A stretch of DNA of 64,000 bases, taken from NCBI GenBank assembly GCA_937858705.1, contig CALLZM010000006.1, positions 186,001 through 250,000 on the forward strand, in the 5' to 3' direction. Under the pieces are notes generated by a model that was not told where the DNA came from, searched no databases, and was given only the letters and a program-made list of their open reading frames with translations. Made by a program: the position numbers and the translations under genes. The DNA comes from an uncultured Candidatus Saccharibacteria bacterium. Lineage in GTDB: Bacteria > Patescibacteriota > Saccharimonadia > Saccharimonadales > Saccharimonadaceae. Position 1 is the stretch's first letter; every line of letters starts with the position of its first letter. Of this stretch, positions 24,708 to 61,099 are shown one piece after another.

Positions 24708-24782
24708 TCCTGCGTAGCTCAGTGGTAGAGCGGTTGGCTGTTAACCAATAGGTCGCTGGTTCGAGCCCAGCCGCAGGAGCCA
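24708..24782 (+). tRNA. tRNA-Asn (anticodon GTT), CCA encoded
   Basis: Cloverleaf can be drawn by eye: acceptor TCCTGCG pairs with CGCAGGA, D stem GCTC/GAGC, anticodon stem GTTGG/CCAAT with loop CTGTTAA (anticodon GTT), T stem GCTGG/CCAGC with loop TTCGAGC, discriminator G and encoded CCA. 75 bases including CCA. It borders the defence island downstream and could have served as an integration site. Confidence 0.96.
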
Positions 24783-25129: not shown

Positions 25130-25774
25130 ATGAAGATGTCGGATCGTCGCAAAGACTTACGTCCAAGGGAGAAGCTCCAGGCGCGAGGTGCTGAGGCACT
25201 GAGCGACTACGAACTTCTGATGGCGATAATTGGCAGCGGTACGCAGTACGCTGATGTGACTAAGCTTGCTCGCGAGGTGCAAAAATTACTGAAAGAAAAA
25301 GGCAGCGAACTAGCTTACGAAGATTTACTTAGTATAAAAAGTCTTGGCCCAGCAAAAGCAACAAATATTATGGCCGGGTTCGAGCTGTGGCGCAGACAGT
25401 TTGAAGTTAGCGAGCGTCCAATCATCGACAGTCCCGAAAAAGCCGCCGAGCAGTTGAGCGACATTCGTGACAAAAAGCAAGAATACTTCGTCTGCCTCAC
25501 GCTCGACGGCGCCAATCGCCTCATCGCCAAGCGCATCATCACCATCGGCACACTCACCGCTAGTTTGGTTCATCCGCGCGAAGTCTTTGCCGAAGCCATA
25601 ACCGATCGCGCCGCCAGTATCATCGTGGCGCATAATCATCCGAGTGGAAATACGGAGCCGAGCCAGGCTGATCGCGATGTGACAGAACGGTTAAAAGAAG
25701 CTGGTTTGATATTAGGAGTTCAATTGGAAGATCACTTGATAGTAACCAGTAAGTCCTATCTATCTATTGTGTAG
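25130..25774 (+). CDS. radC: RadC family JAB/MPN metalloprotein
   Basis: 214 aa, full length. N-terminal UPF0758 helix-hairpin-helix part (SIKSLGPAKATNIMAGFEL) and C-terminal JAMM domain with HNHPSGNTEPSQAD (His-x-His...Asp zinc ligands) and an upstream Glu (EVFAEAI). RadC-type proteins are common near mobile and defence DNA; the old DNA-repair role is not established. First gene of the + strand island after tRNA-Asn; the next gene has its own promoter 2 bases after its stop. Confidence 0.93.
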   Translation: MKMSDRRKDLRPREKLQARGAEALSDYELLMAIIGSGTQYADVTKLAREVQKLLKEKGSELAYEDLLSIKSLGPAKATNIMAGFELWRRQFEVSERPIIDSPEKAAEQLSDIRDKKQEYFVCLTLDGANRLIAKRIITIGTLTASLVHPREVFAEAITDRAASIIVAHNHPSGNTEPSQADRDVTERLKEAGLILGVQLEDHLIVTSKSYLSIV

Positions 25775-25775
25775 A

Positions 25776-25804
25776 TTGCACAACAGAGGTAATTAGTATA
25801 TAAT
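25776..25804 (+). promoter_or_regulatory. Promoter of the SNF2-helicase/Gabija-like operon
   Basis: TTGCAC (25776-25781), 17-base spacer, TATAAT (25799-25804), then 7 bases to the ATG at 25812. Leaderless arrangement. Confidence 0.65.
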
Positions 25805-25811
25805 TTTATCA

Positions 25812-28664
25812 ATGATTTCATCTGCATATCAGGCCAAGTATGTTGTACATGAACTTGAGCGAGTTCATGCTAATGATGATGTCGCCAAACTCTCTGGTCT
25901 GATGTTCGATGCTCAGATAATGCCAACGCCACATCAGGTTGATGCGGCACTTTTTGCTCTAAACTCGCCTAATACAAAGGGTATTATCATGGCTGACGAA
26001 GTGGGTCTCGGTAAAACGATTGAAGCCGGCATAGTTGTCATGCAATACTGGGCCGAACGCAAACGTAAAATTCTTGTTATCTCACCATCCAGCTTGCGCC
26101 AGCAGTGGTCCCAAGAGCTTTCCGAAAAGTTTAACCTTCCATCGGCTGTTGTTGATTCAAAATGGCTAAAAGCTCATAAAAACTTCGATAAAAACGGTAT
26201 TTATATATGTTCCTATGAATTTGCAAATCGAAACTCGCAAAAGCTCTCAGCTGGCTGGGATTTGATGATCCTAGATGAGGCGCACAAACTACGTAACTTC
26301 TACACAAACAAAAAAGGTATAGCCGGTTCGATCGCTGAAATTTCGAAATGGACAACTAAGGTCTTACTTCTCACTGCTACGCCACTTCAAAACAAGCTTG
26401 AAGAGCTGTATGGATTGGTGTCCGTGTTCGATCCCAAGTACTTCCATTCGTTAGATGTTTTCAAACAGCGCTATATCAAATCAAGCCATCCGTATGCGTT
26501 AGAAGATTTACGCGACCGCATGTCAAAAATCGCCAAGCGAACACTTCGAAAAGAGGCTGAGCGATATGTTAAATACACCAACCGTGTAGCGCAAACAGTA
26601 CAATTTACACCATCTGGAGATGAACAGAAGTTATATGAGCTTGTCGATGACTATCTTCATCGCGAAAAACTCTGGGCATTTGCTTCTTCGCAGCGGCATC
26701 TGTCAGCGCTTATTTTGCGTAAGCGCTTAGGTTCATCAACGTTTGCTGTATCCAGCACACTTAGACGAATCGTGTCACGTATGGAAGATGAGTATTCAGC
26801 TGGCAAAGTTCGAGATAATCGCGGCGGACTAGTCGAATTTGATGACTTATCTGAAGAAGAGATAGAGGCATTTGAACAGTCTGGCGCTATAGATAACTAT
26901 GCACTCGATTCTGCTAAACAGCGCGCCGAATTCCGAGCTGAGATCGATGAACTGAAAAGCTATGCTGATCTAGCAGAATCCATCACTAGCAATGTCAAAG
27001 CCGAACACTTAGTCGACGCAATAAATCTTGGTTTCCAAGCTCTCGAATCAAAAGCTGCGCGCAAGGCTATCATATTTACCGAATCCACAATCACTCAGGA
27101 CTACATAGCTAGTGTGCTCGAAAAAGAAGGTTTTGGTGGAAAATACATTAAGTTTAACGGTCAAAACAATTCACCAGAAGCCAACAAGATTTACAATGAG
27201 TGGAAAGAAGCTAACAAAGACACTGACTTGATAACTGGCATTGAATCAGCTGATCGTCGCAAGGCACTCATAGACAAATTCAAAGAAGATGACTTGCAGA
27301 TAATGATCGCCACCGAAGCCGCTAGCGAAGGTATCAACTTGCAGTTTTGTTCGATGATGATCAACTACGACCTACCGTGGAATCCACAGCGCGTCGAGCA
27401 GAGAATTGGTCGTATTCATCGTATGGGCCAGCAGTTCGATGTTGTGGTTGTGAACTTTAGTAATCAAGGTAACGTAGCTGAGCAGAGGATCCTCGAGCTA
27501 CTGGCAGATAAGTTCAGCTTATTTAAAGATACTTTTGGTGCCAGCAACGAAGTTCTTGGTGCAATCGAAGATGGCTTTGATTTTGAAAAAACCATCAGCA
27601 ATATTCTCAACACTTGCCGTACAGATAAAGAAATTACGGAGAAGTTTGCCAAGCTTCAAGACGAGTTCAAAGACGAGATTTCGTCAGAACAGTTACGCGC
27701 CCGTGCTAAGATCTTCGAAGGGCTTGACCCACACGTACAGGATCGGTTTAAACGCTACGGGGAACAGACTGAAGAAGCATTCAACAGTTTTGAGCGCATG
27801 TTTATGGGGCTCACCCGATATGAGTTGCGAGACTATGCTGACTTTCAAGACAACCACATCTTTACGTTAAGTACTTCGCCAGCCAAAGACGCGCCAGCTG
27901 GTAAGTATTTTTATAAAAAGCGTGAGCAGCCTGCGCACTCGCGTCAATACAAATACTCAGGTGAACTAGCTGAATACGTGCGCGACACGGCTCGTAAAAC
28001 TGATACACCACCGGCCAAACTGACTTTCTGCATTGACGAGTCTGAGCGTGTCGGTAGCGATGTTAAAAAGCTAAAGGGTCGCAGCGGTACTATGCTTGTT
28101 CGAAGTGTCACATTCCCGATCAAAGTAGGGCAGAGTGACATGAGCGAGAACTATGTACTAGCTTCTGCCGAGCTAGACAATGGCGATATGCTCGATGGCG
28201 AAGCATGTCGCAACCTGCTGTCGTTAAAAGTTGTTGATATCGATAAACTAGATAGTATTAAATCCTCAGACCTACTAGATATCTACACAAATCGCCTGAT
28301 AGAAGAGCTGCACGAAGAAGTAAAAGAGCGCAACACGGCCGTCTACATGGACAAAAAAGACCTCCTCGAGCGCCAGTACAAAGACAAAGTCACCGAATAC
28401 GAGATGAAAGAAGACGCTTTGTCGTCAAAAATCCGCGAAAAAGAGCGACTAGAAAAACAAGCTCCTACCAATGCCGAGAAACTCCGTATAGCAGGCGAGA
28501 TACAGGCCCTTCGCAAAAAACGCCGAGCCCTGCAGCACGAACGCCTTAATCTTGAAGATAGTATGGAAGACGAAATCTATGACAAGATCTCGGCTGCGCA
28601 GCAGGCAAGTGAGGGTGAGGTTGTTCAGGAGCGGCTATTTGAAGTGTACATTAGTGTTATTTAG
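25812..28664 (+). CDS. SNF2-family DEAD/DEAH helicase with C-terminal coiled coil
   Basis: 950 aa. ATP-driven DNA translocase. Motif I: MADEVGLGKTIEAG (about residues 57-70). Motif Ia: ILVISPSSLRQQW. Motif II: LMILDEAHKLRN. Motif III: LLLTATPLQN. Motifs V/VI: ATEAASEGINLQF and QRIGRIHRMGQ, so it is of the RapA/HepA-like branch. Residues about 820-915 form a charged coiled coil. The 8-base gap to the OLD-family nuclease gene, which starts with a good GGAGAGG site, points to one operon with the Gabija-like pair. DISARM DrmD is also an SNF2 helicase, but no other DISARM genes are present. Probably an anti-phage component; role inferred from context. Confidence 0.85.
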   Translation: MISSAYQAKYVVHELERVHANDDVAKLSGLMFDAQIMPTPHQVDAALFALNSPNTKGIIMADEVGLGKTIEAGIVVMQYWAERKRKILVISPSSLRQQWSQELSEKFNLPSAVVDSKWLKAHKNFDKNGIYICSYEFANRNSQKLSAGWDLMILDEAHKLRNFYTNKKGIAGSIAEISKWTTKVLLLTATPLQNKLEELYGLVSVFDPKYFHSLDVFKQRYIKSSHPYALEDLRDRMSKIAKRTLRKEAERYVKYTNRVAQTVQFTPSGDEQKLYELVDDYLHREKLWAFASSQRHLSALILRKRLGSSTFAVSSTLRRIVSRMEDEYSAGKVRDNRGGLVEFDDLSEEEIEAFEQSGAIDNYALDSAKQRAEFRAEIDELKSYADLAESITSNVKAEHLVDAINLGFQALESKAARKAIIFTESTITQDYIASVLEKEGFGGKYIKFNGQNNSPEANKIYNEWKEANKDTDLITGIESADRRKALIDKFKEDDLQIMIATEAASEGINLQFCSMMINYDLPWNPQRVEQRIGRIHRMGQQFDVVVVNFSNQGNVAEQRILELLADKFSLFKDTFGASNEVLGAIEDGFDFEKTISNILNTCRTDKEITEKFAKLQDEFKDEISSEQLRARAKIFEGLDPHVQDRFKRYGEQTEEAFNSFERMFMGLTRYELRDYADFQDNHIFTLSTSPAKDAPAGKYFYKKREQPAHSRQYKYSGELAEYVRDTARKTDTPPAKLTFCIDESERVGSDVKKLKGRSGTMLVRSVTFPIKVGQSDMSENYVLASAELDNGDMLDGEACRNLLSLKVVDIDKLDSIKSSDLLDIYTNRLIEELHEEVKERNTAVYMDKKDLLERQYKDKVTEYEMKEDALSSKIREKERLEKQAPTNAEKLRIAGEIQALRKKRRALQHERLNLEDSMEDEIYDKISAAQQASEGEVVQERLFEVYISVI

Positions 28665-28672
28665 GAGAGGCT

Positions 28673-30697
28673 ATGAGAATATCGACAATATACATAAAGA
28701 ACTATCGTCTACTCGAAGACTTTGAGCTATCACCTAACGATAGTAGTGATTTCATGTTATGTATTGGACGTAATAATGTTGGAAAAACCTCGATTCTCAC
28801 CCTTTTAGACGAATGTCTAAATAATGATATGCAGAAAGTATCTTTTGATGATATAACACTTGCTCGGCGCCGTGAATTAGTCAGACTTATCATTGCATAT
28901 CAAAAAAAAGAAAAGACTCTTGATGAAGCAAAGGACACGCTACTGTCATTAGCATCAGAACTCGCCATAACAATTGACTATTCAGACCCGTCATCCGACC
29001 TTTCTCTAATTCCAGTGCTATCACTTGATGATAAGCATCAGAGTGTGACAATTTCTCTTCGCAAGCCATTAGACTATCAAAAGTTAGACGAATTACTAGA
29101 GGAGTTCGAAGCAGGCAAAGAGCAGTATGGGGGCAAGCTAGAGAACTTTCTCGAAAAACGCTGGTATTCCTACGCATCTGTACTATGCTGTGCATCATCG
29201 GGTGAAGTGATTCTTGACTATGATTCGCACGATAAAAGTCATGGCAGATACTTTGGTATATCAGATATTATTAAATTATACTCTATCAAAGCAAAGAGGG
29301 GCGTAGCAAACGACGCTGACGATAAATACGAGCGTGCAACATTATCAAAATACGTGCATACATATCTGGGGAGTGAAAGTGATAATTCGGAGCAGCTTAA
29401 AGAACTATATGGGTTAATTGCTGAGACTGATAAGAACCTGACTGAAAAGTATAATAATTCTAAGGACGGCATTTTTAAAAATGTAATAGATGATATTAAA
29501 GAATTTATTCCAGGCACTGAAGAACAAAAACTTTTTGTTCGTTCTATGATACGCAATGAATCTCTTTTAGGCTACGGCAACACAAAGATTTTCTACGGAG
29601 ATGAGGATAGGCGACTCCCTGAGGGGCATAGCGGATTAGGTTATATGAATATGTACGCAATTATTATTAAACTCCGTACAATTATAGAGAGAATTGAACG
29701 CACTCGGGGTAAAGTATTGGCAAATATTTTATTTATTGAAGAGCCAGAAGCACACACACATCCGCACATGCAATACGTCTTCGCTAACAAAATAAAAAGC
29801 TTTTTAAATAAGCAGAATGTCAACAATCTGCTAACCATAGCAACGACGCACTCTTCCCATATTATCTCTCAGTTTAGCGACACGGATGATATAGTTTTTC
29901 TTCGTAAATTGGAGAGTAAGGTAAAGCCGATACATGTTCGCGAGGCGTATTCTGGCAAAGAGCATGAAGCATTTCTGAAGCAATATTTGACGGTTCATAG
30001 AGCAGAGCTCTTCTTTGCAGACAAAGTGATCTTTATAGAGGGCGATACCGAGCGTATCTTGATGCCTTATTTCATCAAACTTCACGATAAGAATAAACGC
30101 ACAGATTTGGGCTCGCAATACATTTCTACTATCGACGTCGGTAATTACATGTACCTTTTCGAAGACTTTATCCGGTTACTAGGAGTGCCAACTCTAATGA
30201 TTACCGACATTGACACTGGCAAAAAGAATGATTCAAATAGATATGTAAAATGTGCCACAGCAGAAGCGGAAGCAACAACGAACCCTACACTGAAACATTA
30301 TTTTCCTAACGATGAGATATCAAACATTAAGAGTAAAGATTTTGACAACAAGAGGTTTGATCTTAGTGGGGGCACATTTACACCAAGTAACGACGGCAAT
30401 CTGCAGATAACTTACCAAACTGAGCAAGGGTCATACTTAGCTCGAAGCTTTGAGGACTCATTTATGTCGATAAATAAAAACTGGCTCGTTACAAACAAGA
30501 CTTTATTTAAATCCAGCTTGAGCAGTAAGTTCGATGCATCTTCAGCTGTCACGTACACAGCCGATGAAGACTACATCAAATCGAAGGCTATGTTTGCCAT
30601 AGATATCATCAATGCGGATTCGAAGCTAGGAAGTGGTAGCAGCATTCAGATACCAAAATACATCGAAGAAGGTCTCGAGTGGTTAGCAAAGAATTAA
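28673..30697 (+). CDS. OLD-family ATPase/TOPRIM nuclease (GajA-like)
   Basis: 674 aa. N-terminal ABC/SMC-type ATPase: Walker A GRNNVGKTS (about residues 32-40), signature-region GHSGLGYMNMY, Walker B ILFIEEPEAHTHP. C-terminal TOPRIM: VIFIEGDTERILMPYFI with the catalytic Glu, and MITDIDTGKK with the Asp-x-Asp. This is the architecture of GajA in the Gabija anti-phage system and of OLD nucleases. GajA is usually about 580 aa; this one is longer in the middle. The stop overlaps the start of the UvrD-like helicase gene by 19 bases, which matches the GajA-GajB order. Confidence 0.87.
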   Translation: MRISTIYIKNYRLLEDFELSPNDSSDFMLCIGRNNVGKTSILTLLDECLNNDMQKVSFDDITLARRRELVRLIIAYQKKEKTLDEAKDTLLSLASELAITIDYSDPSSDLSLIPVLSLDDKHQSVTISLRKPLDYQKLDELLEEFEAGKEQYGGKLENFLEKRWYSYASVLCCASSGEVILDYDSHDKSHGRYFGISDIIKLYSIKAKRGVANDADDKYERATLSKYVHTYLGSESDNSEQLKELYGLIAETDKNLTEKYNNSKDGIFKNVIDDIKEFIPGTEEQKLFVRSMIRNESLLGYGNTKIFYGDEDRRLPEGHSGLGYMNMYAIIIKLRTIIERIERTRGKVLANILFIEEPEAHTHPHMQYVFANKIKSFLNKQNVNNLLTIATTHSSHIISQFSDTDDIVFLRKLESKVKPIHVREAYSGKEHEAFLKQYLTVHRAELFFADKVIFIEGDTERILMPYFIKLHDKNKRTDLGSQYISTIDVGNYMYLFEDFIRLLGVPTLMITDIDTGKKNDSNRYVKCATAEAEATTNPTLKHYFPNDEISNIKSKDFDNKRFDLSGGTFTPSNDGNLQITYQTEQGSYLARSFEDSFMSINKNWLVTNKTLFKSSLSSKFDASSAVTYTADEDYIKSKAMFAIDIINADSKLGSGSSIQIPKYIEEGLEWLAKN

Positions 30698-32508
30698 GCC
30701 CGATAGAGCAAGTGTTTGCTTGTATCGACAACAACCGGCATTTTCTTCTCCATGGGGGCGCAGGCAGTGGTAAAACACATTCTTTAGTGGAGATCATTCA
30801 ATACAAGTACACGAAAGACCCAAATGCTCGAATAGCCTGTATTACTTATACAAATGCAGCAGTAGACGTAGTAAACGAAAGATATCAGAACGATAACTTG
30901 TCTGTATCGACGATTCATAATTTCCTGTGGAATCAATTAAAAAACTATCAAAAAGAACTGGTTGATTCCGTAATTCATCTAGCCAATAGCGGTAAAATAT
31001 CCGTTCCAGCAGGCCTAGAGTTGACACGCAGCCTATTTGAGGATGGTGTGAAATACGGGCAATACCTGAGTCTTCGCAACGGTCAAGTATCACATGATGA
31101 GGTGATTTACCTTGCTGATTATATGTATCAAAAGCATCCACTGCTAGCTCGCGTTACGAAATCACAATATGACCTTATTCTAATCGATGAGTACCAGGAT
31201 ACCCATAAAGAGATCGTATCGAGGTTATTTGAAAGTATCATCCCCGTTGATACCGCAAATCACTCGCTTACGATTGGTTTATTTGGCGACCACATGCAAA
31301 AAATCTACGAGACTAGCGTAGACGACTTGCGCTACGATGAGTGGGCAATAACAAGAATTACGAAACCCGACAACTACCGTAGTTGTCAAGCAATTATCGA
31401 CGGGTTTAATAACAAAATTCGCCACGATGATATATTACAAAATGCTGTCGGTCAGCATAAAGACTATCTAGGGACTGTTAGGTTTGTATACTCGACTAGT
31501 CGCTACGACATGAAGCAGTTCATGGAAGATTTTGATGTACAAAAACCACGCAAAGCACTCTATTTAACTCATCGCCTACTGGCCCGTAATGCTGGCTACC
31601 AAGAGCTTTATGATACATATGATACGCCCGGCTGGACTATGCAAGAAGTTGCAAGGAGATTGAAGGAACTCAAGGTTCTGGATTTACAAAAAAATCAAGA
31701 ATATACTCTTCGAGAAGTTGTAAATCTGATAAACAGTAGTGGTATAGATTTATCAGAGGCCAGTATTGACGAAGAAAAACTATCGCTTTTTCTTGACATG
31801 AAATATTTGGATGTAGGACATCTCAGTAAACGTCTTGTGACCGACAAAGAAAACTTATGCCCATTTCTTGAGTTCTTGCTACGCATAGAAGGCGTTGTTG
31901 ATTTATATAAAGACAATAAAATACCCAAAATGATGGAGGTACTTGGCTTAGAAATAAAGTCACATGTACAGCGAAAAGCCTTAAAGCAGGGGTTAGACAC
32001 CTTGGCTTTGGCCAGGCGGGGGACGATAAGTGATGTAATCGATACTTGTGAACGATATAGTAATATTTTCGTAAAGGGGGATAGATATACCGAGCGAGCC
32101 ACTCAAGCGTCACGGTTACTTAGCCATCTAAAAAGCATCTCTTATTCAGAAGTCATCAACCTGTACGAGTCTTTATTAAAAGACGACGGAGAGTTCGGTA
32201 CGCAACATAGCTCAAAAGGCAATGCTTACGATAACGTTGTTGCCGTTATGGATAATGGCAACTGGTGGCAGGGCAGTAACTATGAAAATATTTTTACAAC
32301 AGATGACAGTAAAAGGTCTGACATAAAGACCAGGAGGCTGGTCTATACAGCTGGCTCGCGTGCAATTAAAAATCTTGTGATATTTTTCTACGTTGATGTT
32401 ACGGCCGAGTGGAAGCGCCAGAAGGCCCTTTCGGTCATCGAGGATGCGAAAGCGTTCTTCGGTAAAGATAACGTAAGTGTCTATCCCACTGGTGATTCTG
32501 TTTTGTAA
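30679..32508 (+). CDS. UvrD/PcrA-like superfamily 1 helicase (GajB-like)
   Basis: 609 aa. Motif I: GGAGSGKTHSL (about residues 24-34). Motif II: LILIDEYQDTH. Motif III: IGLFGDHMQKIY. Motif IV: NYRS. Motif V: QHSSKGNAYDNVV. Motif VI: YTAGSRAIKNL, keeping the Arg. The start is a GTG inside the 3' end of the nuclease gene (19-base overlap), so translation is coupled. In Gabija, GajB is a UvrD-like helicase next to GajA, which fits. It is larger than typical GajB (about 490 aa) because of an inserted region between motifs IV and V. Ends the operon; a 117-base AT-rich gap follows. Confidence 0.86.
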   Translation: MVSKELSPIEQVFACIDNNRHFLLHGGAGSGKTHSLVEIIQYKYTKDPNARIACITYTNAAVDVVNERYQNDNLSVSTIHNFLWNQLKNYQKELVDSVIHLANSGKISVPAGLELTRSLFEDGVKYGQYLSLRNGQVSHDEVIYLADYMYQKHPLLARVTKSQYDLILIDEYQDTHKEIVSRLFESIIPVDTANHSLTIGLFGDHMQKIYETSVDDLRYDEWAITRITKPDNYRSCQAIIDGFNNKIRHDDILQNAVGQHKDYLGTVRFVYSTSRYDMKQFMEDFDVQKPRKALYLTHRLLARNAGYQELYDTYDTPGWTMQEVARRLKELKVLDLQKNQEYTLREVVNLINSSGIDLSEASIDEEKLSLFLDMKYLDVGHLSKRLVTDKENLCPFLEFLLRIEGVVDLYKDNKIPKMMEVLGLEIKSHVQRKALKQGLDTLALARRGTISDVIDTCERYSNIFVKGDRYTERATQASRLLSHLKSISYSEVINLYESLLKDDGEFGTQHSSKGNAYDNVVAVMDNGNWWQGSNYENIFTTDDSKRSDIKTRRLVYTAGSRAIKNLVIFFYVDVTAEWKRQKALSVIEDAKAFFGKDNVSVYPTGDSVL

Positions 32509-32590
32509 ATATATAGCCAAATGTTACAAGTATAAATAAAATTATATCACTATTTAACAGATACGAGTACAATTAATTTGTTATAAACAC

Positions 32591-32619
32591 TTGTATAAAA
32601 TAATAGATAGTCTTATAAT
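32591..32619 (+). promoter_or_regulatory. Promoter of the Fic/type III R-M operon
   Basis: TTGTAT (32591-32596), 17-base spacer, TATAAT (32614-32619), 6 bases to the Fic ATG at 32626. Leaderless arrangement. Confidence 0.65.
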
Positions 32620-32625
32620 AATTCT

Positions 32626-33780
32626 ATGAAACCAATAAAGGCAATCAATCCACCTTTTGACTCACCACTAGTGAGTGAGATATTTGCACTCGAAAAACTC
32701 CGCTACACACGACTAGGGGGCACGACGCCACCTTGGCTGTTCTTTGATCTAAAGGAGATTATGCATATCCTAGAGAGTGTCGCTAGTGCTCGCATAGAGG
32801 GTAATCGCACGACCGTTGTTGGTGCAGCCATGGACTCGCTGGAGCAAGACAAGGCTCCTAAAAGTGAAGACGCCAGAGAATTACGTAATATTCGCGCAGC
32901 AATAGAGTTTATAGAAGATGCCTTTAGTGAAGATACCGCGCTTAAAATCACTCCGTCTCTCATCCGTGAGCTTCATAAGATCCTTGTAGAGGGCTTGAAA
33001 AAAGATGGCAGTAAAACTCCAGGCAGGTGGCGTACCGAGCCTGTAAGAATCGAAAAAAGCACTCACACACCGCCAGAACACACAGAGGTGCCATCACTTA
33101 TGCAAGAGCTGTGCGATTACATCAATGAGGATGCAGCCAGCCAGCATGACATTATTAAGATTGCCATTGCTCATCATCGTTTTGCAGCTATCCATCCGTT
33201 TGACAATGGTAATGGGCGAACAGCCCGCCTACTTACGTATGCAATGCTTGTCCGCTCGGAGTATATCAATAAAACGAAGCGCACGATTCTTAACCCGTCA
33301 GCAATATTCTGCATCGATCGCCAAAAGTATTACGACATGCTCGCGATAGCGGACAAAGGCACTGAAAAGGGCACAGAGCAATGGTGTCTGTACGTAGCAC
33401 AGGGTATCTCTGCTGAGATGGACCGTGTTAACCGGCTACTTGATCGCGATTATGCAACAAATAATATCATTGAACCGGCACTAAAAAACGCTGTCGACAG
33501 TAAATTTTTGTCCAATGAGGAATATCAGATCCTTAAAATTGCCATGCGCGACGACATTATTCAGGTGCAGAACATCAAACACCTTTTCGGCACAACCGCA
33601 TCTGACGCTGTACAAGCGTCGCGTGTTATTGCTAATATGAGAGACAAGAAGCTGCTGATGATACACCCGAATTACCAAAAAAAGTACATTATGCGATTCG
33701 CAAATAATTACTTGTTGCACGATGTGTTAAAGGCAATGGATAAAAATGGATTACTGGTTGTAAAGAATGAGGCAGAGTAG
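32626..33780 (+). CDS. Fic family protein with N-terminal inhibitory motif
   Basis: 384 aa. AMP-transferase fold. Catalytic motif HPFDNGNGR (residues 190-198) with all key residues, so an active Fic is expected. An N-terminal SARIEGN (about residues 54-60) fits the [S/T]-x3-E-[G/N] autoinhibitory helix of class II Fic proteins. The C-terminal 100 residues look like a winged-helix segment. Fic enzymes attach AMP to target proteins; the target is unknown. The gene begins the operon that continues with mod 7 bases later, so it may protect, regulate or accompany the restriction system. Confidence 0.9.
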   Translation: MKPIKAINPPFDSPLVSEIFALEKLRYTRLGGTTPPWLFFDLKEIMHILESVASARIEGNRTTVVGAAMDSLEQDKAPKSEDARELRNIRAAIEFIEDAFSEDTALKITPSLIRELHKILVEGLKKDGSKTPGRWRTEPVRIEKSTHTPPEHTEVPSLMQELCDYINEDAASQHDIIKIAIAHHRFAAIHPFDNGNGRTARLLTYAMLVRSEYINKTKRTILNPSAIFCIDRQKYYDMLAIADKGTEKGTEQWCLYVAQGISAEMDRVNRLLDRDYATNNIIEPALKNAVDSKFLSNEEYQILKIAMRDDIIQVQNIKHLFGTTASDAVQASRVIANMRDKKLLMIHPNYQKKYIMRFANNYLLHDVLKAMDKNGLLVVKNEAE

Positions 33781-33787
33781 GGGATTT

Positions 33788-35680
33788 ATGCAAAGCGATC
33801 AAAATACAGATATTCACGAACTAGACGGTAAATCGCCAGAGTTCCGTACGCAACTAGCGAAGCAGTTGGAGGATTTGGTGCCAGAGGCGATTGCTGATGG
33901 CAAAGTTGATGTTGCTAAGCTCAAGGAATTGCTAGACGAAGACGCTGGCGATACAAACGAGCGGTTCGGTCTGTTTTGGCCGGGCAAGAAGCGTGCGATG
34001 CGAGCGGCGCAGAACCCGACGACTGCCACGCTGAAGCCTGCCAAAGAGCTGAGCAAAGACTGGGACACTACCCAAAATATCTTTATCGAGGGCGACAACC
34101 TTGAGGTGCTAAAGGTGTTACAAAAGCAATATCACAACGCCATCAAGATGATCTACATCGACCCTCCGTACAACACCGGCAAAGATTTCGTCTACCCAGA
34201 CAACTTCAAAGAAGGCCTGCAAAACTACCTAGAATTTAGCAAACAAGTTGACGAGGGTGGTAAAAAGATTAGCACCAATGCCGAAACCCAAGGGCGCTAC
34301 CACAGCAATTGGCTGAATATGATGTATCCACGACTGAAGCTGGCACGGAATTTGCTGACAGATGATGGGGTGATTTTTATTTCGATTGATGACTCCGAGC
34401 AAGATAATTTGAAAAAGCTGTCCTGTGAAGTTTTTGGTGAAGGAAATTTTGTAGGTTCATTTATTTGGAAAAAAAAAGGAACATCAACTAACGTAGCGGG
34501 TGCGCAGCTTAGCGCACTGACAGAGTACGTTTTATGTTTTGCAAGAAATGCAGCGAAACTTCCCTTGAATTCGCGAGTTGTGTCGTCTTCTGAACGAAGT
34601 TATCCATTTGAAGACGCAGAAGGTAAGTATCGCACCGCAGGATTAGAGAAGAAGAGCACCGGTGACTATAACCGTGAGTCAATGAAGTTTGAAATAATAG
34701 GTCATGCCCCACGTCCTGGAAAAAGATGGCAAATCGGGATCGATAAAGCTCGTGAACTCGAATCAAAGAATCGATTTATTTTCGATAACGGCATCGTAAA
34801 GCTAAAGATCTACGATTTCGAAGACGGTGACTCCTATTCTGCAAATCCAAACCTTTTGCTTGATGTTGGCTCGACTCAAAGCGGACAATCCGAAGTCGAT
34901 AGTTTGATGAGCGGTAACCTTTTCGACACCCCAAAACCATCGAGCCTAATTTCGCATCTTATAAATATTGGCACGAAAAATAATTCCACTATCCTTGATT
35001 TCTTTTCAGGCTCAGGCACCACGGCTCACGCCGTCATGCAACTCAACGCCGAGGACGGTGGCAATCGCAAGCATATACAAGTGCAGTTACCTGAACCGAT
35101 AGACGAAAAGAGCGAAGCTTACAAAGCCGGTTACCGCAAAATTAGCGACATCGCTCGTGAGCGCATCAACCGCGCGGGCGAAAAGATAAAGGCGGACTTT
35201 GCCGATAAACTTGCCGAACGCGACACTCCACTCGACGCTGGCTACCGCACCTACAAACTCAGCGACACCAACTTTACCAAATGGAAATCTGAGGCCACAA
35301 ATGACCTCGGCGAATTGCAAATGCGCCTCGATGCTATGCGAAGCAGTAGTGATGACAACGCTAGCGAAGAAGACTTGCTAGTAGAGGTCATGCTCAAACT
35401 CGGCCTGCCACTCACTGGTCGCACGCAAACTCGTGACCTCGACGGCCTAACAGTACACCAGGTAGTGGCAAGTGACTATGATGTAGACAGTAGCACACAA
35501 CCAGTCTTTTATCTCAACGAACACATCAAACCAACCCTAGAACAACTCCGCGCCATCGTAACCGAGCTAACTCCAAGCCGCTTCGTCATCCTCGACGACG
35601 CGTTCCAGGGTGACAGTCAGCTAAAAACCAATCTTGTACAGACTTGTAAAAGTTATGATGTAGAGCTTTGGACGGTGTAG
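33788..35680 (+). CDS. mod: Type III restriction-modification methyltransferase (Mod)
   Basis: 630 aa. N6-adenine DNA methyltransferase of the beta class: catalytic DPPY (residues 125-128, in IYIDPPYNTG) comes before the AdoMet motif DFFSGSGTTAHAV (about 400-412). N-terminal and central target-recognition parts lie around them, as expected for Mod. The frame extends to ATG 33767, but ATG 33788 with GTAGGGG 4-5 bases upstream is preferred. A run of nine A (34469-34477) encodes Lys-Lys-Lys inside the gene, a possible slippage tract. Works with Res encoded two genes downstream. Confidence 0.93.
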   Translation: MQSDQNTDIHELDGKSPEFRTQLAKQLEDLVPEAIADGKVDVAKLKELLDEDAGDTNERFGLFWPGKKRAMRAAQNPTTATLKPAKELSKDWDTTQNIFIEGDNLEVLKVLQKQYHNAIKMIYIDPPYNTGKDFVYPDNFKEGLQNYLEFSKQVDEGGKKISTNAETQGRYHSNWLNMMYPRLKLARNLLTDDGVIFISIDDSEQDNLKKLSCEVFGEGNFVGSFIWKKKGTSTNVAGAQLSALTEYVLCFARNAAKLPLNSRVVSSSERSYPFEDAEGKYRTAGLEKKSTGDYNRESMKFEIIGHAPRPGKRWQIGIDKARELESKNRFIFDNGIVKLKIYDFEDGDSYSANPNLLLDVGSTQSGQSEVDSLMSGNLFDTPKPSSLISHLINIGTKNNSTILDFFSGSGTTAHAVMQLNAEDGGNRKHIQVQLPEPIDEKSEAYKAGYRKISDIARERINRAGEKIKADFADKLAERDTPLDAGYRTYKLSDTNFTKWKSEATNDLGELQMRLDAMRSSSDDNASEEDLLVEVMLKLGLPLTGRTQTRDLDGLTVHQVVASDYDVDSSTQPVFYLNEHIKPTLEQLRAIVTELTPSRFVILDDAFQGDSQLKTNLVQTCKSYDVELWTV

Positions 35681-35682
35681 AA

Positions 35683-36504
35683 ATGGATCATAACGTTTTC
35701 GAGCAATCAAAAAAGATAAATGAATACGGCGCAGAGTACTGGACGGCGCGAGATTTGTATAAAATCCTAGAATATGCAGAATATCGGAATATTCTGCCTG
35801 TATTAGAGAAAGCAAAGGAAGCCGCGAAGAACAGTGGGGCAGTTGTCCACAACCATTTCGTGGACATTAACGAAATGGTTACGATAGGCTCTGGAGCACA
35901 GCGCGAACGCGACAATGTGATACTTGATCGCTATGCTTGCTATCTTATTGTGCAGAACTCTGATCCGTCAAAGGAAATCGTTGCACTTGGACAAACATAC
36001 TTTGCCATACAGACGAGACGTCAAGAAGCAGCAGATAGCTTACTAGAAGACCGAAAGCGTGTAATGCTGCGTGATGAAGTGACCAAACATAATGCAAGTC
36101 TAGCTAGCTCTGCCAAAGAAGCAGGTGTTGCAGATTTTGCGCGATTTCAAAATGCAGGTTATCAAGGACTGTATGGCGGAATGAGTGCTAGTCAGATAAA
36201 ACAGCGCAAAAAACTTAAGAAATCACAACAAATCCTCGACCATATGGGAAGTGAAGAGTTAGCCGCTAATCTATTTCGAGCAACGCAAGCCGATGCAAAA
36301 CTGAAAAGAGAAGGTATTCGAGGAGAATATAGTGCTAATCTAGCGCACTACGAAGTAGGTCAGAAGGTCCGTAAAACTATTAAAGACCTCGGTGGAACGA
36401 TGCCGGAAAATCTCCCAACGCCAGATGGCATTGGTCGTGCTAAAACTCGAATTAAATCAGATGACAAGAGAAAACTGAAAGAAAGTCAATCGAATGAAAA
36501 TTAA
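35683..36504 (+). CDS. DinD-like BRO-N protein inserted between mod and res
   Basis: 273 aa. N-terminal BRO domain: WTARDLYKILEYAEYRNILPVLEKA, then DRYACYLIVQNSDPSKEIVALGQTYFAIQTRR (landmarks abbreviated); the C-terminal half is basic and helical with LRGEYSANLAHYEVGQKVRKTI-like composition. Close in layout to DNA-damage-inducible protein D. ATG 35683 is preferred over a TTG at 35668 that overlaps mod. It overlaps res by 11 bases. DinD-type proteins occur as cargo in R-M operons, possibly as regulators of DNA repair; function here is unknown. Confidence 0.82.
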   Translation: MDHNVFEQSKKINEYGAEYWTARDLYKILEYAEYRNILPVLEKAKEAAKNSGAVVHNHFVDINEMVTIGSGAQRERDNVILDRYACYLIVQNSDPSKEIVALGQTYFAIQTRRQEAADSLLEDRKRVMLRDEVTKHNASLASSAKEAGVADFARFQNAGYQGLYGGMSASQIKQRKKLKKSQQILDHMGSEELAANLFRATQADAKLKREGIRGEYSANLAHYEVGQKVRKTIKDLGGTMPENLPTPDGIGRAKTRIKSDDKRKLKESQSNEN

Positions 36505-39415
36505 ATACGATGCACGACAAGATTTTCAGATAAAAGCGATCGACGCGATTGCTGATATATTCGAAGGCCAGCCGAACGATGCTGAAGATTTTAGCACCGC
36601 ACTGAAGTCGCGTGCGGTACCTGGGGCGCAAGCTGGGTTATTTAACGAAATCGGCGCGATTGGCAATAACCTGCTGCTCGATGAGGATTCGATACTAGAA
36701 AATGTCCGCTCTATTCAAAATGAAAATGGGATAGAGCCAGGTGCTAAGCTCGATGGCCTAAACTTCAGTATCGAGATGGAAACCGGTACAGGTAAGACAT
36801 ACGTGTATCTGCGGACGGCATTTGAGCTGGCACAAAAATACAACTTCCGTAAATTTATTATTTTAGTCCCAAGTATCGCCATCAAAGAGGGTGTAAAGAG
36901 TAGCATCGATAGTATGCGCGAGCACTTCCGAGAGATTTATCCGAATTTGCCATTCGATACAAACGTGTATGACGGCAAAAGCCCAGAAGTGGTACAAAGC
37001 TTCGCTACAAGCACAAGTATGCAGTTTATGATTATGACGATCCAGTCGATCAAGGGCGATAGTTCAAATAGGATATTTCATCAAGAACGCGACAAATTGA
37101 ACGGAATTGCTCCGGTCGATTTTATGGCGGCTACAAACCCTATTGTTATCATGGATGAACCACAAAATATGGAAGGCGATTTGTCTGGCGGAGCTATCGA
37201 AAAGCTGAGCCCGATGTGTACGTTGCGCTATAGCGCTACACATGTGCGTGAATACAATATGATGTATCGACTCGATCCGGTAGACGCACACCGCGAAAAG
37301 CTCGTCAAAGGCATCGTAGTAGCTAATGCTCAGCAGCAGGGTAGCGATGCCAAGCCGTACATCAAGCTGCTCGACGTACGTAATACGCCGAAACTACAAG
37401 CCTATGTAGAAGTGCTGGTGCGTGACAAAAACGGCAATGTTGGCCGCAAGCCACTATGGGTGAATCATCATGACAAGCTCGATATCCGCACTAATAATAG
37501 TATTTACGATGGATATACGATAAATGATATTTCGACTATCCCTGCAAATGTCGATATCGGCTCACACGGCGTGTTGATGCTTGGCGAAAATTGGGGCGGC
37601 AACGAAGACCAAATAATGCGCGAGATGATACGCACGACTATTCGTGAACATATCAAGCGCGAGTATATTCTAAAAGGCTCAAATATAAAGGTGCTGAGCC
37701 TGTTCTTTATCGATAAAGTCGAGAACTACTTGGCATATGACGATGATGGAAATCAGATTGATGGCAAATTCGTGAAGTGGTTTAACGAACTCTATATCGA
37801 AGAGCGCAATAAAAGTCACTTGTATCAGGAAATCCTGCCAGAAGACCCAGAGGAAGTACGAAAAGCCTACTTCGCCGAAATGCGAAAAGGCGGCAAAACG
37901 ACATTTGTTGACAGCAAAGAGGGTCGCGGCAACGCCAACGACGAATCAGCCTACGACCTCATCATGAGCGGTAAAGAAAAGCTGCTCGACAATGCCAATC
38001 CAGTACGGTTTATCTTTAGCCACTCTGCTCTCAAAGAAGGTTGGGATAATCCAAATGTATTCCAGATATGTATGATGCGCGAAAGCAACAGCGCCAAGGA
38101 TCGCCGCCAAACAATTGGCCGTGGATTGCGCTTGGCTGTGCAACAGGTTGGAAATGAATATATCCGCACGTTTGATGAGCAAGTCAATCAGCTGATAGTG
38201 ATTGCCAATGAATCATATCGTGACTTTGCTAACAACCTTCAGAAAGAATATAAACAAGCTGGGATTCAGATTGGCTATGTGAGAAAGGGAGAGTTCGCAC
38301 GAATACAACTACATGACGAGCCAGAAAAGACCCTTGGTCACGAGGCCTCAAAAAAAGTGTGGGAGCATTTGAATCGGCGCGGATTTATAGACGATGAAGG
38401 TCGAGTGCTTGCCAACTTTGCACCACAGAACTTGGGCTTTAACCTTGATCTACCTGATGGACTGCAAGGTTATCATGCAGAAGTTGTCGATGTGATAGAG
38501 GGATGTAAGCTCGATAAATTTGTCAAAGACGCACGCAAAAAAGAGACAATTCGACTAAATAAAGAAGTGATGTACAGCCCTGTCCTGGAAAAACTTTGGA
38601 AGAAGATTTCTCGCAAAACGACCTACAGGGTGGAGTTTGATAACGGGCAAGTGGTGATGGCGGCGATCGAAGCTATTAAACGAGCGTCGGAAGTAAAGCC
38701 TCTGCGAATCGAGGTAAAGAAGAACCGAGTACTACTTAGGCGTGGTGGCGTGACGAATGCTGGCATGGTAGGCGAAAGCTCGACAGACCTCACGGGTACA
38801 TTTGAACTGCCGGACATTATTAGTGAGTTGCAGGACGACACTGGTCTGACGCGCCACACAATCGTCGATATACTGCTCGGTAGCAATCGACTACATGAGT
38901 TCTTGCAAAACCCCTACGATTATATCCAGATGGTGAAGAATGCAATCAAGTCGGTACTCTCAAGTCTAGTTGTAGATGGCATCAAATATGAAAAAATAGG
39001 CGAAGAGGTCTATGAGCTTCGTAACTTCCAGCGTGACAGCGAAGAAGAGACCGAAAGGTTTATCGATCGGCTTTACGAGGTGCATAATACGCAGAAAACT
39101 ATTACCGATAAACTATCGCTCGACTCCTCGGTTGAGCAAGAGTTTGCGAAACTTCTTGATAGTCGTGAGGATATAAAGCTGTTTCTTAAACTGCCAGCAA
39201 AGTTTGTCGTACCTACGCCTGTCGGTGACTACAATCCTGACTGGGCAATCGTCAAAGAAGTTGACGGACAGGAGAAAATTTATATGGTGCGGGAGACAAA
39301 AGGCGGTAGTGAACGCGAATCAGAGCTGCAGAAAATTGAGTGTGCTAAAAGACACTTCACGGAGATTGGAATGTATGATTACGCTAAGGCTACTCCGGAT
39401 AATTGGAGAATATAG
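36494..39415 (+). CDS. res: Type III restriction endonuclease/helicase subunit (Res)
   Basis: 973 aa, normal length. SF2 helicase part: Walker A METGTGKTYVY (about residues 95-105), motif II IMDEPQNME, motif III LRYSATH, motif V FSHSALKEGWDNPN, motif VI RRQTIGRGLRL. C-terminal PD-(D/E)XK nuclease: NPDW with Asp915, then RETKGG with Glu934 and Lys936. All catalytic elements are intact, so an active enzyme is expected. It cleaves unmethylated DNA together with Mod after translocation. Start ATG overlaps the DinD-like gene. Confidence 0.95.
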   Translation: MKIKYDARQDFQIKAIDAIADIFEGQPNDAEDFSTALKSRAVPGAQAGLFNEIGAIGNNLLLDEDSILENVRSIQNENGIEPGAKLDGLNFSIEMETGTGKTYVYLRTAFELAQKYNFRKFIILVPSIAIKEGVKSSIDSMREHFREIYPNLPFDTNVYDGKSPEVVQSFATSTSMQFMIMTIQSIKGDSSNRIFHQERDKLNGIAPVDFMAATNPIVIMDEPQNMEGDLSGGAIEKLSPMCTLRYSATHVREYNMMYRLDPVDAHREKLVKGIVVANAQQQGSDAKPYIKLLDVRNTPKLQAYVEVLVRDKNGNVGRKPLWVNHHDKLDIRTNNSIYDGYTINDISTIPANVDIGSHGVLMLGENWGGNEDQIMREMIRTTIREHIKREYILKGSNIKVLSLFFIDKVENYLAYDDDGNQIDGKFVKWFNELYIEERNKSHLYQEILPEDPEEVRKAYFAEMRKGGKTTFVDSKEGRGNANDESAYDLIMSGKEKLLDNANPVRFIFSHSALKEGWDNPNVFQICMMRESNSAKDRRQTIGRGLRLAVQQVGNEYIRTFDEQVNQLIVIANESYRDFANNLQKEYKQAGIQIGYVRKGEFARIQLHDEPEKTLGHEASKKVWEHLNRRGFIDDEGRVLANFAPQNLGFNLDLPDGLQGYHAEVVDVIEGCKLDKFVKDARKKETIRLNKEVMYSPVLEKLWKKISRKTTYRVEFDNGQVVMAAIEAIKRASEVKPLRIEVKKNRVLLRRGGVTNAGMVGESSTDLTGTFELPDIISELQDDTGLTRHTIVDILLGSNRLHEFLQNPYDYIQMVKNAIKSVLSSLVVDGIKYEKIGEEVYELRNFQRDSEEETERFIDRLYEVHNTQKTITDKLSLDSSVEQEFAKLLDSREDIKLFLKLPAKFVVPTPVGDYNPDWAIVKEVDGQEKIYMVRETKGGSERESELQKIECAKRHFTEIGMYDYAKATPDNWRI

Positions 39416-39418
39416 CTA

Positions 39419-40771
39419 TTGATAATCTCTAAGTCCGACTACATGCTCTTTCTCCGCCAGCCAGCCTGGCTTTGGCTGAAGAAGAATGAACCGAGCAAGC
39501 TTCCACCTGTCGATGCAGCGACACAAGCAATGTTCGACGCCGGGCATGCATTTGAGCCGTATGTTGAGTCACTGTTTCCAGAAGGGGTAACGCTCGGCTT
39601 TAGTGATTTTGATGAATACCGCTCACTACCACTGCGAACCCAGCAAGCTTTTGAGTCTGGTGCTCAAGTTGTATTCCAGCCTCGGTTTGAATGGAATGGG
39701 TTTACTTGCATTTCAGATATCGTTTCAGTCATAGAGGATAAGACGATTGACTTGTATGAGATTAAATCTAGCACACGCGTTAAGCCCGATCACCTGTACG
39801 ATCTTGTTTTCCAAAAAACCGTGCTTGAGGGCAACGGCTTTACGGTTCGAAACGCATCAGTGATTCATGTAAATAATCAGTATGTCCGCGAGGGTGACGT
39901 TAATCCAATAGAGCTCACGACGTTTGCTGACGTGACCGACGAGGTAAATGAAATTGCTTTAAAAACTCCAGAATACATGGAAGCAGCAAAGAAAGCTGCT
40001 GCGCAAGCAGAAATGCCAGATCCAAATCCAGAACTTGCTAAGCTTGGTTCAAAATCTGAATGGATGAAAGTCTATGACAATATCTTTCCGCCCGAACCAA
40101 AGGTGTGGCCAGAAGATACTCGAGCCGAAATCAACAAGCAAGAGATCGAACGCTTTTTGGGTGAACTACAATATCCGCTCTACTTCTTTGATTACGAAAC
40201 AATGCAGGGTCTTGTGCCGTATTTCGACGGCCAGCGACCGTACCAGCAAGTACCGTTTCAATATTCTCTGCATATCATCCGTGAGCCAGGCGCGGAAGTT
40301 GAACATAAAGAGTATCTTCACAGAGAAAATACTAATCCAGCGCCAGACTTAGCTAAGCAACTAGTAGAAGACATGGGCGATGCTGGCTCGATCATCACCT
40401 GGAATATGCGCTTCGAAAAATCGGTAAACGAAGAGCTTGGGCGGATGTATCCGGAGTATGCCGAGCAAATTACGGCCATCAACGAACGTGTCGTCGACCT
40501 CATGATTCCATTTAAGGCAAAGTGGTATGACGATCCGCGCTGCGAGGGAAGTGCGAGCATCAAAAAGGTGTTGCCAGTAGTGTGCCCTGAGCTAAGCTAT
40601 AAAGATCTTGGCATTCAAGACGGCAACTCGGCTCAACGGCTCTGGATGGAAGCGGTGCTCGATGAAACACGAGCGGACCAGAAAGATCAGATACTCGCCG
40701 ACCTAACCGAATATTGCAAGATGGATACGTGGGCGATGGTACGAATATGGCAGGAGCTGTTAAAAATATGA
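39419..40771 (+). CDS. DUF2779 protein, Cas4-like plus RNase H-like nuclease domains
   Basis: 450 aa. The N-terminal half looks like a Cas4/PD-(D/E)XK fold: ISKSDYMLFLRQPAWLWLKK, then CISDIVSV and DLYEIKSSTRVKPDH (Asp...Glu-x-Lys). The C-terminal half is the DUF2779 domain: YFFDYETMQGLVPYFDG, resembling DEDD/RNase H-like exonucleases, with MRFEKSVNEELGRMYPEY and a final EYCKMDTWAMVRI. The start is a TTG at 39419, three bases after the res stop. Often found beside type III or abortive systems. Last gene of the island operon; probably a nuclease with unknown target. Confidence 0.82.
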   Translation: MIISKSDYMLFLRQPAWLWLKKNEPSKLPPVDAATQAMFDAGHAFEPYVESLFPEGVTLGFSDFDEYRSLPLRTQQAFESGAQVVFQPRFEWNGFTCISDIVSVIEDKTIDLYEIKSSTRVKPDHLYDLVFQKTVLEGNGFTVRNASVIHVNNQYVREGDVNPIELTTFADVTDEVNEIALKTPEYMEAAKKAAAQAEMPDPNPELAKLGSKSEWMKVYDNIFPPEPKVWPEDTRAEINKQEIERFLGELQYPLYFFDYETMQGLVPYFDGQRPYQQVPFQYSLHIIREPGAEVEHKEYLHRENTNPAPDLAKQLVEDMGDAGSIITWNMRFEKSVNEELGRMYPEYAEQITAINERVVDLMIPFKAKWYDDPRCEGSASIKKVLPVVCPELSYKDLGIQDGNSAQRLWMEAVLDETRADQKDQILADLTEYCKMDTWAMVRIWQELLKI

Positions 40772-40914
40772 AACCGACTTTGTATTTAGACGTGTCCGAT
40801 TTGTAGCCTACTATCCCTGTTAGATAGTTCCAGGTCACAAGGGGAGCCAGACATAGGCACTATAACGAAAGAAATAATTTTTTGTTTTTACACTGTTGGC
40901 ATATTTTCAACACT

Positions 40915-41244: not shown

Positions 41245-41311
41245 CCCGCATATTAATTACCAAACTAGATAGTGTCAGGAAGTAGCGTATCGGGCTATAC
41301 TCACGCGATTG

Positions 41312-60878: not shown

Positions 60879-61099
60879 TGTTCCGTTTCCCCCTTCCGCT
60901 ATAGTACGAGCGGGTGGGGAAGTCTTGTTGGATAAGACTGCCTGCTCTTTTCCGCGAAGACCATAGCATATTGCTCGGATAGGGCGGTTTTCTGGCTTTA
61001 CAGTTGCGCGACAGTGGAGGAATTGCACCTCACTTACCCGTGACCCCTATTCGAAATGTATTGTGTATAGTTACTGTACGCCAAAACCGAGCAAAACAC

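What the first reader, a model, noticed from the sequence alone, without database searches (positions are those of the whole stretch)
25812..32508. Three-gene defence operon: SNF2 helicase plus Gabija-like nuclease and helicase
The SNF2-type helicase has its own promoter and lies 8 bases before the GajA-like gene, which overlaps the GajB-like gene by 19 bases. Standard Gabija has only the last two. Both Gabija-like proteins are larger than usual. This could be an extended Gabija variant or a distinct system.
Basis: partly seen in the sequence, partly recalled or inferred. Interest (0 to 1): 0.66.

Follow-up and report, generated by a model that had tools for sequence, protein, structure and literature searches.

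The report
Gabija nested in type III restriction operon
A tiny-genome bacterium carries an intact Gabija anti-phage gene pair, but the helicase gene in front of it belongs to a neighbouring restriction-modification system whose operon seems to act as a docking site for many different phage-defence genes.

Summary
The three genes are real, intact and placed as described. GajA and GajB are a genuine Gabija pair and are not unusually large for the family. The SNF2 gene is not an extra Gabija gene. The gene block continues downstream: Fic, type III Mod, DinD, type III Res, DUF2779 (25812-40771). SNF2 relatives in other genomes sit with type III Mod in 46 of 50 loci with enough flank, and with GajA/B in 1. 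None of 16 loci found by searching with GajA has this SNF2. The window's SNF2, Mod and Res share the same nearest relatives, none of which has Gabija. So the core is SNF2-Mod-Res, a published but uncharacterised subgroup (PMC8259958). Gabija plus Fic lies in a slot between SNF2 and Mod; DinD lies in a second slot between Mod and Res. Elsewhere the same slots hold Shedu, PARIS-like pairs, AIPR, Abi_2, Schlafen, SIR2, GmrSD, RhuM or Fic. Gabija recurs beside type III Mod/Res in Aliarcobacter and Marinobacter. The parts are known; the two-slot platform, with Gabija in it, I did not find described.

The parts
25776..25804 (+). promoter-like site of the SNF2 transcript (TATAAT 25799-25804, 7 nt before the ATG; leaderless layout)
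   Evidence: sequence; one search lists TGCACA-16-TATAAT, 10 of 12; one search shows a -10-like hexamer 5-9 nt before other starts of this window too; no transcript data
25812..28664 (+). SNF2/RapA-like ATPase, 950 aa, associated subunit of the type III RM core
   Evidence: Pfam SNF2-rel_dom and Helicase_C; DrmD-like but under the DISARM cut-off, 574 of 950 bits; next to Mod in 46 of 50 relatives with flank; RapA fold over 723 aligned residues
28673..30697 (+). GajA: OLD-family ABC ATPase + TOPRIM nuclease, 674 aa (slot 1 cargo)
   Evidence: PADLOC GajA 516 bits over residues 1-673; AAA_15 + OLD-like_TOPRIM; motifs intact
30679..32508 (+). GajB: UvrD-like helicase, 609 aa, GTG start (slot 1 cargo)
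   Evidence: PADLOC GajB 444 bits over residues 9-600; Walker A and DEYQD intact
32614..32619 (+). TATAAT 6 nt before the Fic ATG, likely start of a second transcript
   Evidence: sequence; weak -35, not listed
32626..33780 (+). Fic-family protein, 384 aa, HPFDNGNGR motif intact (slot 1 cargo)
   Evidence: PF02661 84 bits; PADLOC SoFic 184.5 bits; motif
33767..35680 (+). type III methyltransferase Mod, 637 aa, DPPY and FSGSG motifs
   Evidence: PADLOC MTase_III 625 bits; motifs
35668..36504 (+). DinD-like protein with Bro-N domain, 278 aa (slot 2 cargo)
   Evidence: NF008573 364 bits, cut-off 242; Bro-N
36494..39415 (+). type III restriction subunit Res, 973 aa, GTGKT and PD...ETK motifs
   Evidence: PADLOC REase_III 889 bits; RE_endonuc; motifs
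39419..40771 (+). DUF2779 protein, 450 aa, last gene of the block
   Evidence: PF11074 145 bits; a 449 aa ORF also lies at the end of the homologous operon L011 (its family was not scanned)

Best explanation
The locus is an SNF2-associated type III restriction-modification operon (SNF2 ATPase, Mod, Res) that carries other defence modules in two slots: GajA-GajB plus Fic between SNF2 and Mod, DinD between Mod and Res. How it most likely works: Mod methylates one strand of a short asymmetric site and so marks host DNA; Mod-Res cuts incoming unmarked DNA (established type III knowledge, not shown here). The RapA-like SNF2 protein is an ATP-driven DNA translocase that clears or remodels proteins on the target DNA for the complex (inferred; the published ATPase of this position was not needed for methylation and was not found with the cutting enzyme). 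Gabija is a separate, complete second layer: GajA nicks or cuts phage DNA with GajB as helicase partner. It shares the SNF2 promoter because it was inserted into the operon, not because it needs SNF2. Fic and DinD are further accessory modules. Shown here: gene content, intact motifs, shared nearest relatives of SNF2/Mod/Res, and turnover of the slot genes. Inferred: expression, activity and division of labour.
For: Mod in 46 of 50 strong SNF2 loci with at least 5 kb to the right, or 43 of 51 in an unbroken same-strand run by a second count. Patescibacterial relatives outside the window: 8 of 9 have Mod in the run, 7 of 9 are complete SNF2..Mod..Res, none has GajA/B. Nearest relatives of SNF2, Mod and Res are L009 first, then L014 Kocuria and L015 Schaalia (with viral contig L094 for SNF2 and Res); the SNF2 clade of 5 has support 100; none has Gabija. 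Within that clade the slots differ: GajAB+Fic/DinD in the window, a 318 aa protein/Shedu in L009, empty in Kocuria. Complete loci with an occupied slot: 23 of 41 genome loci, 7 of 18 viral, 3 of 7 patescibacterial. Slot genes are defence-like. E. coli TB06051 reads HTH-SNF2-Abi-AIPR-Mod-Res and an Aeromonas plasmid SNF2-Mod-AAA+DUF4276-Res. Gabija beside type III genes in two other lineages. GajAB GC3 0.385/0.411 and DinD 0.344 against 0.445-0.508 for SNF2, Mod and Res.
Against: SNF2-GajA-GajB looks like one transcript, with 8 nt and overlapping junctions, and a possible promoter cuts it off from Fic-Mod; in this genome SNF2 could have been recruited by Gabija. 4 of 50 flanked SNF2 loci lack Mod (L048, L071, L072, L087), and one patescibacterial relative sits next to a type ISP-like gene instead (L198). 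Gabija in slot 1 was seen only once, in this window. The GC3 contrast is small (window sd 0.071).
Confidence: 0.82

Rival explanations
1. Extended Gabija: SNF2 works with GajAB as a three-gene system, delivering or exposing DNA to GajA.
For: Tight junctions and one shared promoter-like site.
Against: SNF2 relatives with GajA/B: 1 of 67, and there GajAB follows Res. GajA-found loci with SNF2: 0 of 16. GajA in 3 of 294 class genomes and SNF2 in 4 of 294, together only in the window's genome.
Confidence: 0.06
2. Coupled platform: slot modules such as Gabija are guards, switched on when phage defeats the type III core (anti-restriction protein, failed cutting), with the SNF2 ATPase as the sensor or switch.
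For: Slots are filled again and again with effector-type genes. A PARIS-like AAA+DUF4276 pair occupies slot 2 on an Aeromonas plasmid. Published reasoning for effectors embedded in BREX/BR loci, and PARIS sensing of Ocr, is given in PMC12839542 (section 35 part 1 read).
Against: No functional data; Gabija works alone in other hosts (PMC12407980, passages); slots are empty in 18 of 41 genome loci, so the core does not need them.
Confidence: 0.2
3. Plain defence-island clustering: neighbours by chance accumulation, with no slot preference.
For: Defence genes cluster in general; in G105 of the same genus RadC is followed by what looks like type I RM genes instead (by eye).
Against: The inserted genes lie inside the core operon, on its strand, in 23 of 41 complete genome loci, and core order is mostly kept.
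Confidence: 0.14
4. DISARM or a DISARM-like system, because the SNF2 resembles DrmD.
For: Best PADLOC and NCBIfam hits are DrmD.
Against: 574 bits against a cut-off of 950; no MZB/DUF1998 domain (the DrmB domain, as I recall) in the genome; the neighbours are type III RM.
Confidence: 0.02

Closest known systems
m4C type III RM systems with an extra helicase-like ATPase: Eco86II, BspHIV (PMC8259958; passages, section 13 part 1 and section 17 read)
   Same: SF2 helicase-like ATPase gene 5' of mod, then res; said to occur in more than 500 genomes; role unknown
   Different: Here GajAB and Fic lie between the ATPase and Mod, and DinD between Mod and Res; the methylated base is unknown; homology to the Eco86II ATPase itself was not tested
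Gabija (GajA + GajB)
   Same: Both proteins, gene order, overlap and motifs
   Different: Embedded in a type III operon behind an SNF2 gene
Auxiliary/backup effectors embedded in BREX and BREX-related loci (PMC12839542; abstract, sections 28 and 35 part 1, passages read)
   Same: Defence modules including Shedu, GmrSD, PARIS and Gabija inside a modification-restriction operon; some of those cores also have a RapA-like SNF2 helicase
   Different: Core here is type III Mod/Res; no PglZ, BrxC or DUF499 among the genes of the block
DISARM DrmD
   Same: SNF2 helicase resembling DrmD (572-574 bits)
   Different: Under the family cut-off; no other DISARM gene seen
RapA (RNA polymerase-associated SNF2 ATPase)
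   Same: Predicted fold matches along most of the chain, 723 aligned residues, Z 22.6, rmsd 7.2
   Different: Only 20% identity; the match starts at RapA residue 123, so RapA's N-terminal part is missing; no sign that it binds RNA polymerase

Membership tests
Gabija | GajA: OLD-family ATPase + TOPRIM nuclease with intact motifs | tested here: met
Gabija | GajB: UvrD-like helicase directly after GajA | tested here: met
   19 nt overlap
Gabija | Phage restriction by the GajAB complex | not testable with these tools
   needs plaque assays
Extended Gabija with SNF2 | SNF2 gene keeps its place before GajA in other genomes | tested here: not met
   0 of 16 GajA-found loci; 1 of 67 SNF2 loci has GajA/B, and it lies after Res
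Type III RM | Mod beta-class methyltransferase with DPPY and AdoMet motif | tested here: met
Type III RM | Res: SF2 ATPase + PD-(D/E)XK endonuclease | tested here: met
Type III RM | Methylation of one strand and cutting of unmethylated DNA | not testable with these tools
   needs long-read methylome and restriction assays
SNF2-associated type III subgroup (Eco86II/BspHIV kind) | SNF2-type ATPase linked to Mod and Res across genomes | tested here: met
   46 of 50 with Mod; 41 of 69 complete SNF2..Mod..Res, contig ends included
SNF2-associated type III subgroup (Eco86II/BspHIV kind) | Homology of the ATPase to that of Eco86II or BspHIV | not tested
   those sequences were not compared; E. coli has SNF2-Mod-Res loci of this kind
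SNF2-associated type III subgroup (Eco86II/BspHIV kind) | m4C as the modified base | not testable with these tools
   sequence does not decide m4C against m6A here
DISARM | DrmD over the NCBIfam cut-off | tested here: not met
   574.4 of 950 and 277.1 of 610 bits
DISARM | DrmB (MZB/DUF1998) in the genome | tested here: not met
   no match in G000, 96% complete, 31 contigs
BREX / BREX-related | PglZ, BrxC or DUF499 next to the SNF2 helicase | tested here: not met
   no such Pfam match in the ten proteins of 25812-43725; rest of the genome not searched

The most novel reading that the evidence does not exclude
SNF2-Mod-Res operons are a general, phylum-crossing platform with two docking slots. 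Whatever effector sits there (Gabija, PARIS, Shedu, AIPR, Abi, Schlafen, SIR2, Fic) is put under control of the type III core, so that the SNF2 ATPase senses failed or blocked restriction and releases the effector as a backup.
Probability: 0.2. Interest if true: 0.75.

Novelty: new variant of a known kind. Interest (0 to 1): 0.45.

Why it matters
It corrects a tempting misreading (a three-gene Gabija) and gives the unexplained helicase of type III systems a testable setting: its operon takes up effector modules at two fixed places in many phyla. If the modules are coupled to the core, type III RM would be more than a two-subunit enzyme, and reading these slots would be a way to find new effectors. 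It also shows such a layered operon in a genome of only 0.91 Mb.

Tried and rejected
Extended Gabija: rejected. DISARM: rejected. BREX/BR (Hma): at first I took the large SNF2-MTase-1060 aa loci for DUF499 systems; Pfam shows a methylase and a ResIII helicase instead, so they are type III-like. Island ends: no direct repeat at the tRNA-Asn (24708-24782) that would mark an integration site; the same-genus genome G105 has a different neighbourhood after RadC and its contig ends there, so no clean empty site. RecBCD link: Gabija was reported to act on DNA free of RecBCD (PMC12407980, abstract and passages); no RecB over the cut-off in this genome, but one 1092 aa UvrD + PDDEXK_1 protein, so nothing follows. 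Structure search: the C-terminal part of the SNF2 model was not searched alone; no nuclease was sought there beyond Pfam.

Rows dropped: 13 of 80 loci had SNF2 under 500 bits or none, and 17 of the 67 left had under 5 kb to the right. In one search, 44 of 53 slot-1 genes were scanned (left out: 5 of L074, one SNF2 fragment of L081, and 3 in L009/L194/L196), 14 of 17 slot-2 genes (left out: a second Mod of L025, one gene of L067, the SduA of L009, which one search covers). Of 42 plasmid GajA records I opened 8; of 21 viral GajA loci I used the 6 with long matches, one of which (L173) ends right after GajA.

Not found in print: searches returned no paper whose listing or the passages I read describe effector slots in type III operons; only open-licence PMC papers are searched, most listed papers were not opened, and supplements were not read.

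Full report
What is there. The window is a stretch of a 0.91 Mb genome (31 contigs, 96% complete). The finding's three ORFs exist as stated: SNF2 25812-28664, GajA-like 28673-30697, GajB-like 30679-32508. All are open and carry intact motifs: DEVGLGKT, DEAH, TATPL and QRIGRIHRMGQ in SNF2; GRNNVGKTS, EEPEAH, EGDTE and ITDID in GajA; GGAGSGKT and DEYQD in GajB (one further SNF2 pattern of mine found nothing because it was too strict for a motif seen). PADLOC gives GajA 516 bits over residues 1-673 and GajB 444 bits over residues 9-600; Pfam gives AAA_15 + OLD-like_TOPRIM and UvrD-helicase. Sizes are ordinary for the family.

The block goes on. Downstream on the same strand lie Fic (32626-33780), type III Mod (33767-35680), DinD (35668-36504), type III Res (36494-39415) and DUF2779 (39419-40771), with overlaps of 14, 13 and 11 nt and a gap of 3 nt. 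Mod has DPPY and FSGSG; Res has GTGKT and PD...ETK. A perfect TATAAT ends 7 nt before the SNF2 start and another 6 nt before the Fic start; similar hexamers precede several other genes of the window without a ribosome-binding site, which fits leaderless messages (inference). So SNF2-GajA-GajB and Fic-Mod-DinD-Res-DUF2779 may be two transcripts.

Whose is the SNF2? In the class of the window's genome, SNF2 relatives occur in 4 of 294 genomes and GajA relatives in 3 of 294; only the window's genome has both. The three other SNF2 genes stand before type III genes: L011 SNF2-Mod-Res; L009 SNF2-318 aa-Mod-Shedu-Res-GmrSD; L010 SNF2-Mod-Res. In a phylum-wide sample, SNF2 relatives were in 7 of 379 genomes and GajA in 1 of 379, the window's own. 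Of nine patescibacterial SNF2 loci other than the window's, 8 have Mod in the run, 7 are complete SNF2..Mod..Res, none has GajA/B, and one (L198) has a type ISP-like gene instead.

Across bacteria, a scan of species genomes kept the 80 best of 537 relatives. Of 67 with a strong SNF2 ORF, 51 have a Mod on the same strand; of the 50 with at least 5 kb on the right, 46 do. GajA/B is present in 1 of the 67 (L084, Marinobacter). By a stricter count over 69 loci (unbroken same-strand run), 51 have Mod and 41 are complete. The misses are L048, L071, L072 and L087. In whole genomes of 50 SNF2 carriers, 6 have a GajA- or OLD-like match; one is linked to the SNF2 operon. From the GajA side, none of 16 loci found with GajA has this SNF2, and one has type III Mod/Res. 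In E. coli, DNA relatives of one plasmid SNF2 gene are in 251 of 5,426 complete genomes; the two chromosomal ones I opened read SNF2-Mod-Res and HTH-SNF2-Abi-AIPR-Mod-Res.

Core and cargo have different histories. The nearest relatives of the window's SNF2 are L009 (55.7%), L014 Kocuria (52.5%), and L094 and L015 Schaalia (48.0% each). For Mod they are L009 (56.1%), L015 and L014 (48.9, 48.8%). For Res they are L009 (54.4%), L014 (52.2%), L094 (50.6%) and L015 (49.3%). The SNF2 tree of 89 rows puts window, L009, Kocuria, Schaalia and L094 in one group with support 100. None of the four others carries Gabija, and their slots differ; in Schaalia and L094 the order is Mod-Res-SNF2. GC3 is 0.385 and 0.411 for GajA and GajB and 0.344 for DinD, against 0.445, 0.508 and 0.487 for SNF2, Mod and Res; the window mean is 0.465, sd 0.071, so this is only suggestive.

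Two slots. Among complete SNF2..Mod..Res loci, slot 1 (SNF2|Mod) is occupied in 21 of 41 genome loci, 6 of 18 viral and 3 of 7 patescibacterial; slot 2 (Mod|Res) in 10, 2 and 1. Of 44 slot-1 genes scanned, Pfam finds AAA_15 or SMC-type ATPases in 9 each (overlapping counts), AIPR in 7, DUF4276 in 4, and 2 each of Fic, Schlafen AlbA_2 and Bro-N; one each of kinase, Abi_2, SIR2, GmrSD and Abi_C. Of 14 slot-2 genes, 4 are RhuM and one each YhcG, Abi_2, Schlafen and Fic. Shedu is in slot 2 of L009 and a PARIS-like AAA + DUF4276 pair in slot 2 of an Aeromonas plasmid (the PARIS reading is mine). Fic follows SNF2 directly in L028 and L038. Gabija recurs in two other type III settings: Aliarcobacter plasmid, DUF2130-GajA-GajB-Mod-RhuM-Res without SNF2; and Marinobacter, SNF2-Mod-RhuM-Res-GajA-GajB. 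I did not test slot enrichment against flank density.

The SNF2 protein. A 40-sequence AlphaFold model (mean pLDDT 82) matches RapA along the chain: 723 aligned residues, model 3-950 on RapA 123-966, Z 22.6, rmsd 7.2, 20% identity; other SNF2 cores score Z 21-26 over about 400-480 residues. RapA is also the best PDB sequence match. This suggests a RapA-like DNA translocase (inference). It scores as DrmD-like but under that family's cut-off, and no DrmB domain is in the genome, so it is not filed as DISARM.

Comparison with print. PMC8259958 (passages, section 13 part 1 and section 17 read) describes type III systems Eco86II and BspHIV with a conserved SF2 helicase-like ATPase 5' of mod, near mod/res in more than 500 genomes, not needed for methylation, not detected with the Eco86II enzyme, of unknown role. 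This is the closest known kind; direct homology was not tested. PMC12839542 (Rakesh and Krishnan; abstract, sections 28 and 35 part 1, passages) describes auxiliary effectors, including Shedu, GmrSD, PARIS and Gabija, inside BREX and BREX-related loci. Passages of PMC2292703 and PMC10853773 did not describe this arrangement. The type III SNF2 operon with the same habit was not seen in what my searches returned.

Verdict. A Gabija pair nested, with Fic and DinD, in an SNF2-associated type III RM operon. The likely function is two or more stacked defence layers; coupling between them is possible but unshown. New variant of a known kind.

Noticed in passing
window 60979-61050 (-), 61205-61774 (+): An AdoCbl-II riboswitch (42.9 bits) lies over the start of a 641 aa ORF with no Pfam or NCBIfam match, beside a divergent BtuR/CobO adenosyltransferase and a ClpA/B-like ATPase: cobalamin-linked genes in a 0.91 Mb genome.
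   Followed up: partly
window 25812-39415; L009, L014, L015, L094: SNF2, Mod and Res of this small genome group with those of Kocuria and Schaalia odontolytica (Actinomycetota). If the organism is a Saccharibacterium, as I suspect mainly from genome size, this would be exchange with the phylum of its usual hosts (the host relation is recalled).
   Followed up: partly
window 25130-25774; L227 7569-8216: RadC stands directly before the defence genes here and, in the same-genus genome G105, before genes that look like a type I RM system (by eye): a possible defence hotspot.
   Followed up: partly
L162 9001-13697: Pontibacter plasmid with GajA-GajB-Fic in the same order as the window, without SNF2 or type III genes.
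   Followed up: no
L010 15043-18168, L011 8737-10530, L009 1042-2820: Genes after Res in the relatives are also defence-like: a large SMC-type ATPase and GmrSD-type nucleases, so the tail may be a third slot.
   Followed up: partly
window (many starts): TANNNT hexamers 5-9 nt before start codons without a ribosome-binding site at several genes suggest leaderless transcripts in this lineage.
   Followed up: partly
L044 17234-21141, L055, L059, L109, L118: A conserved pair of about 380 and 922 aa follows Res in five loci (SNF2 of L044 and L109 is identical); family not identified.
   Followed up: no
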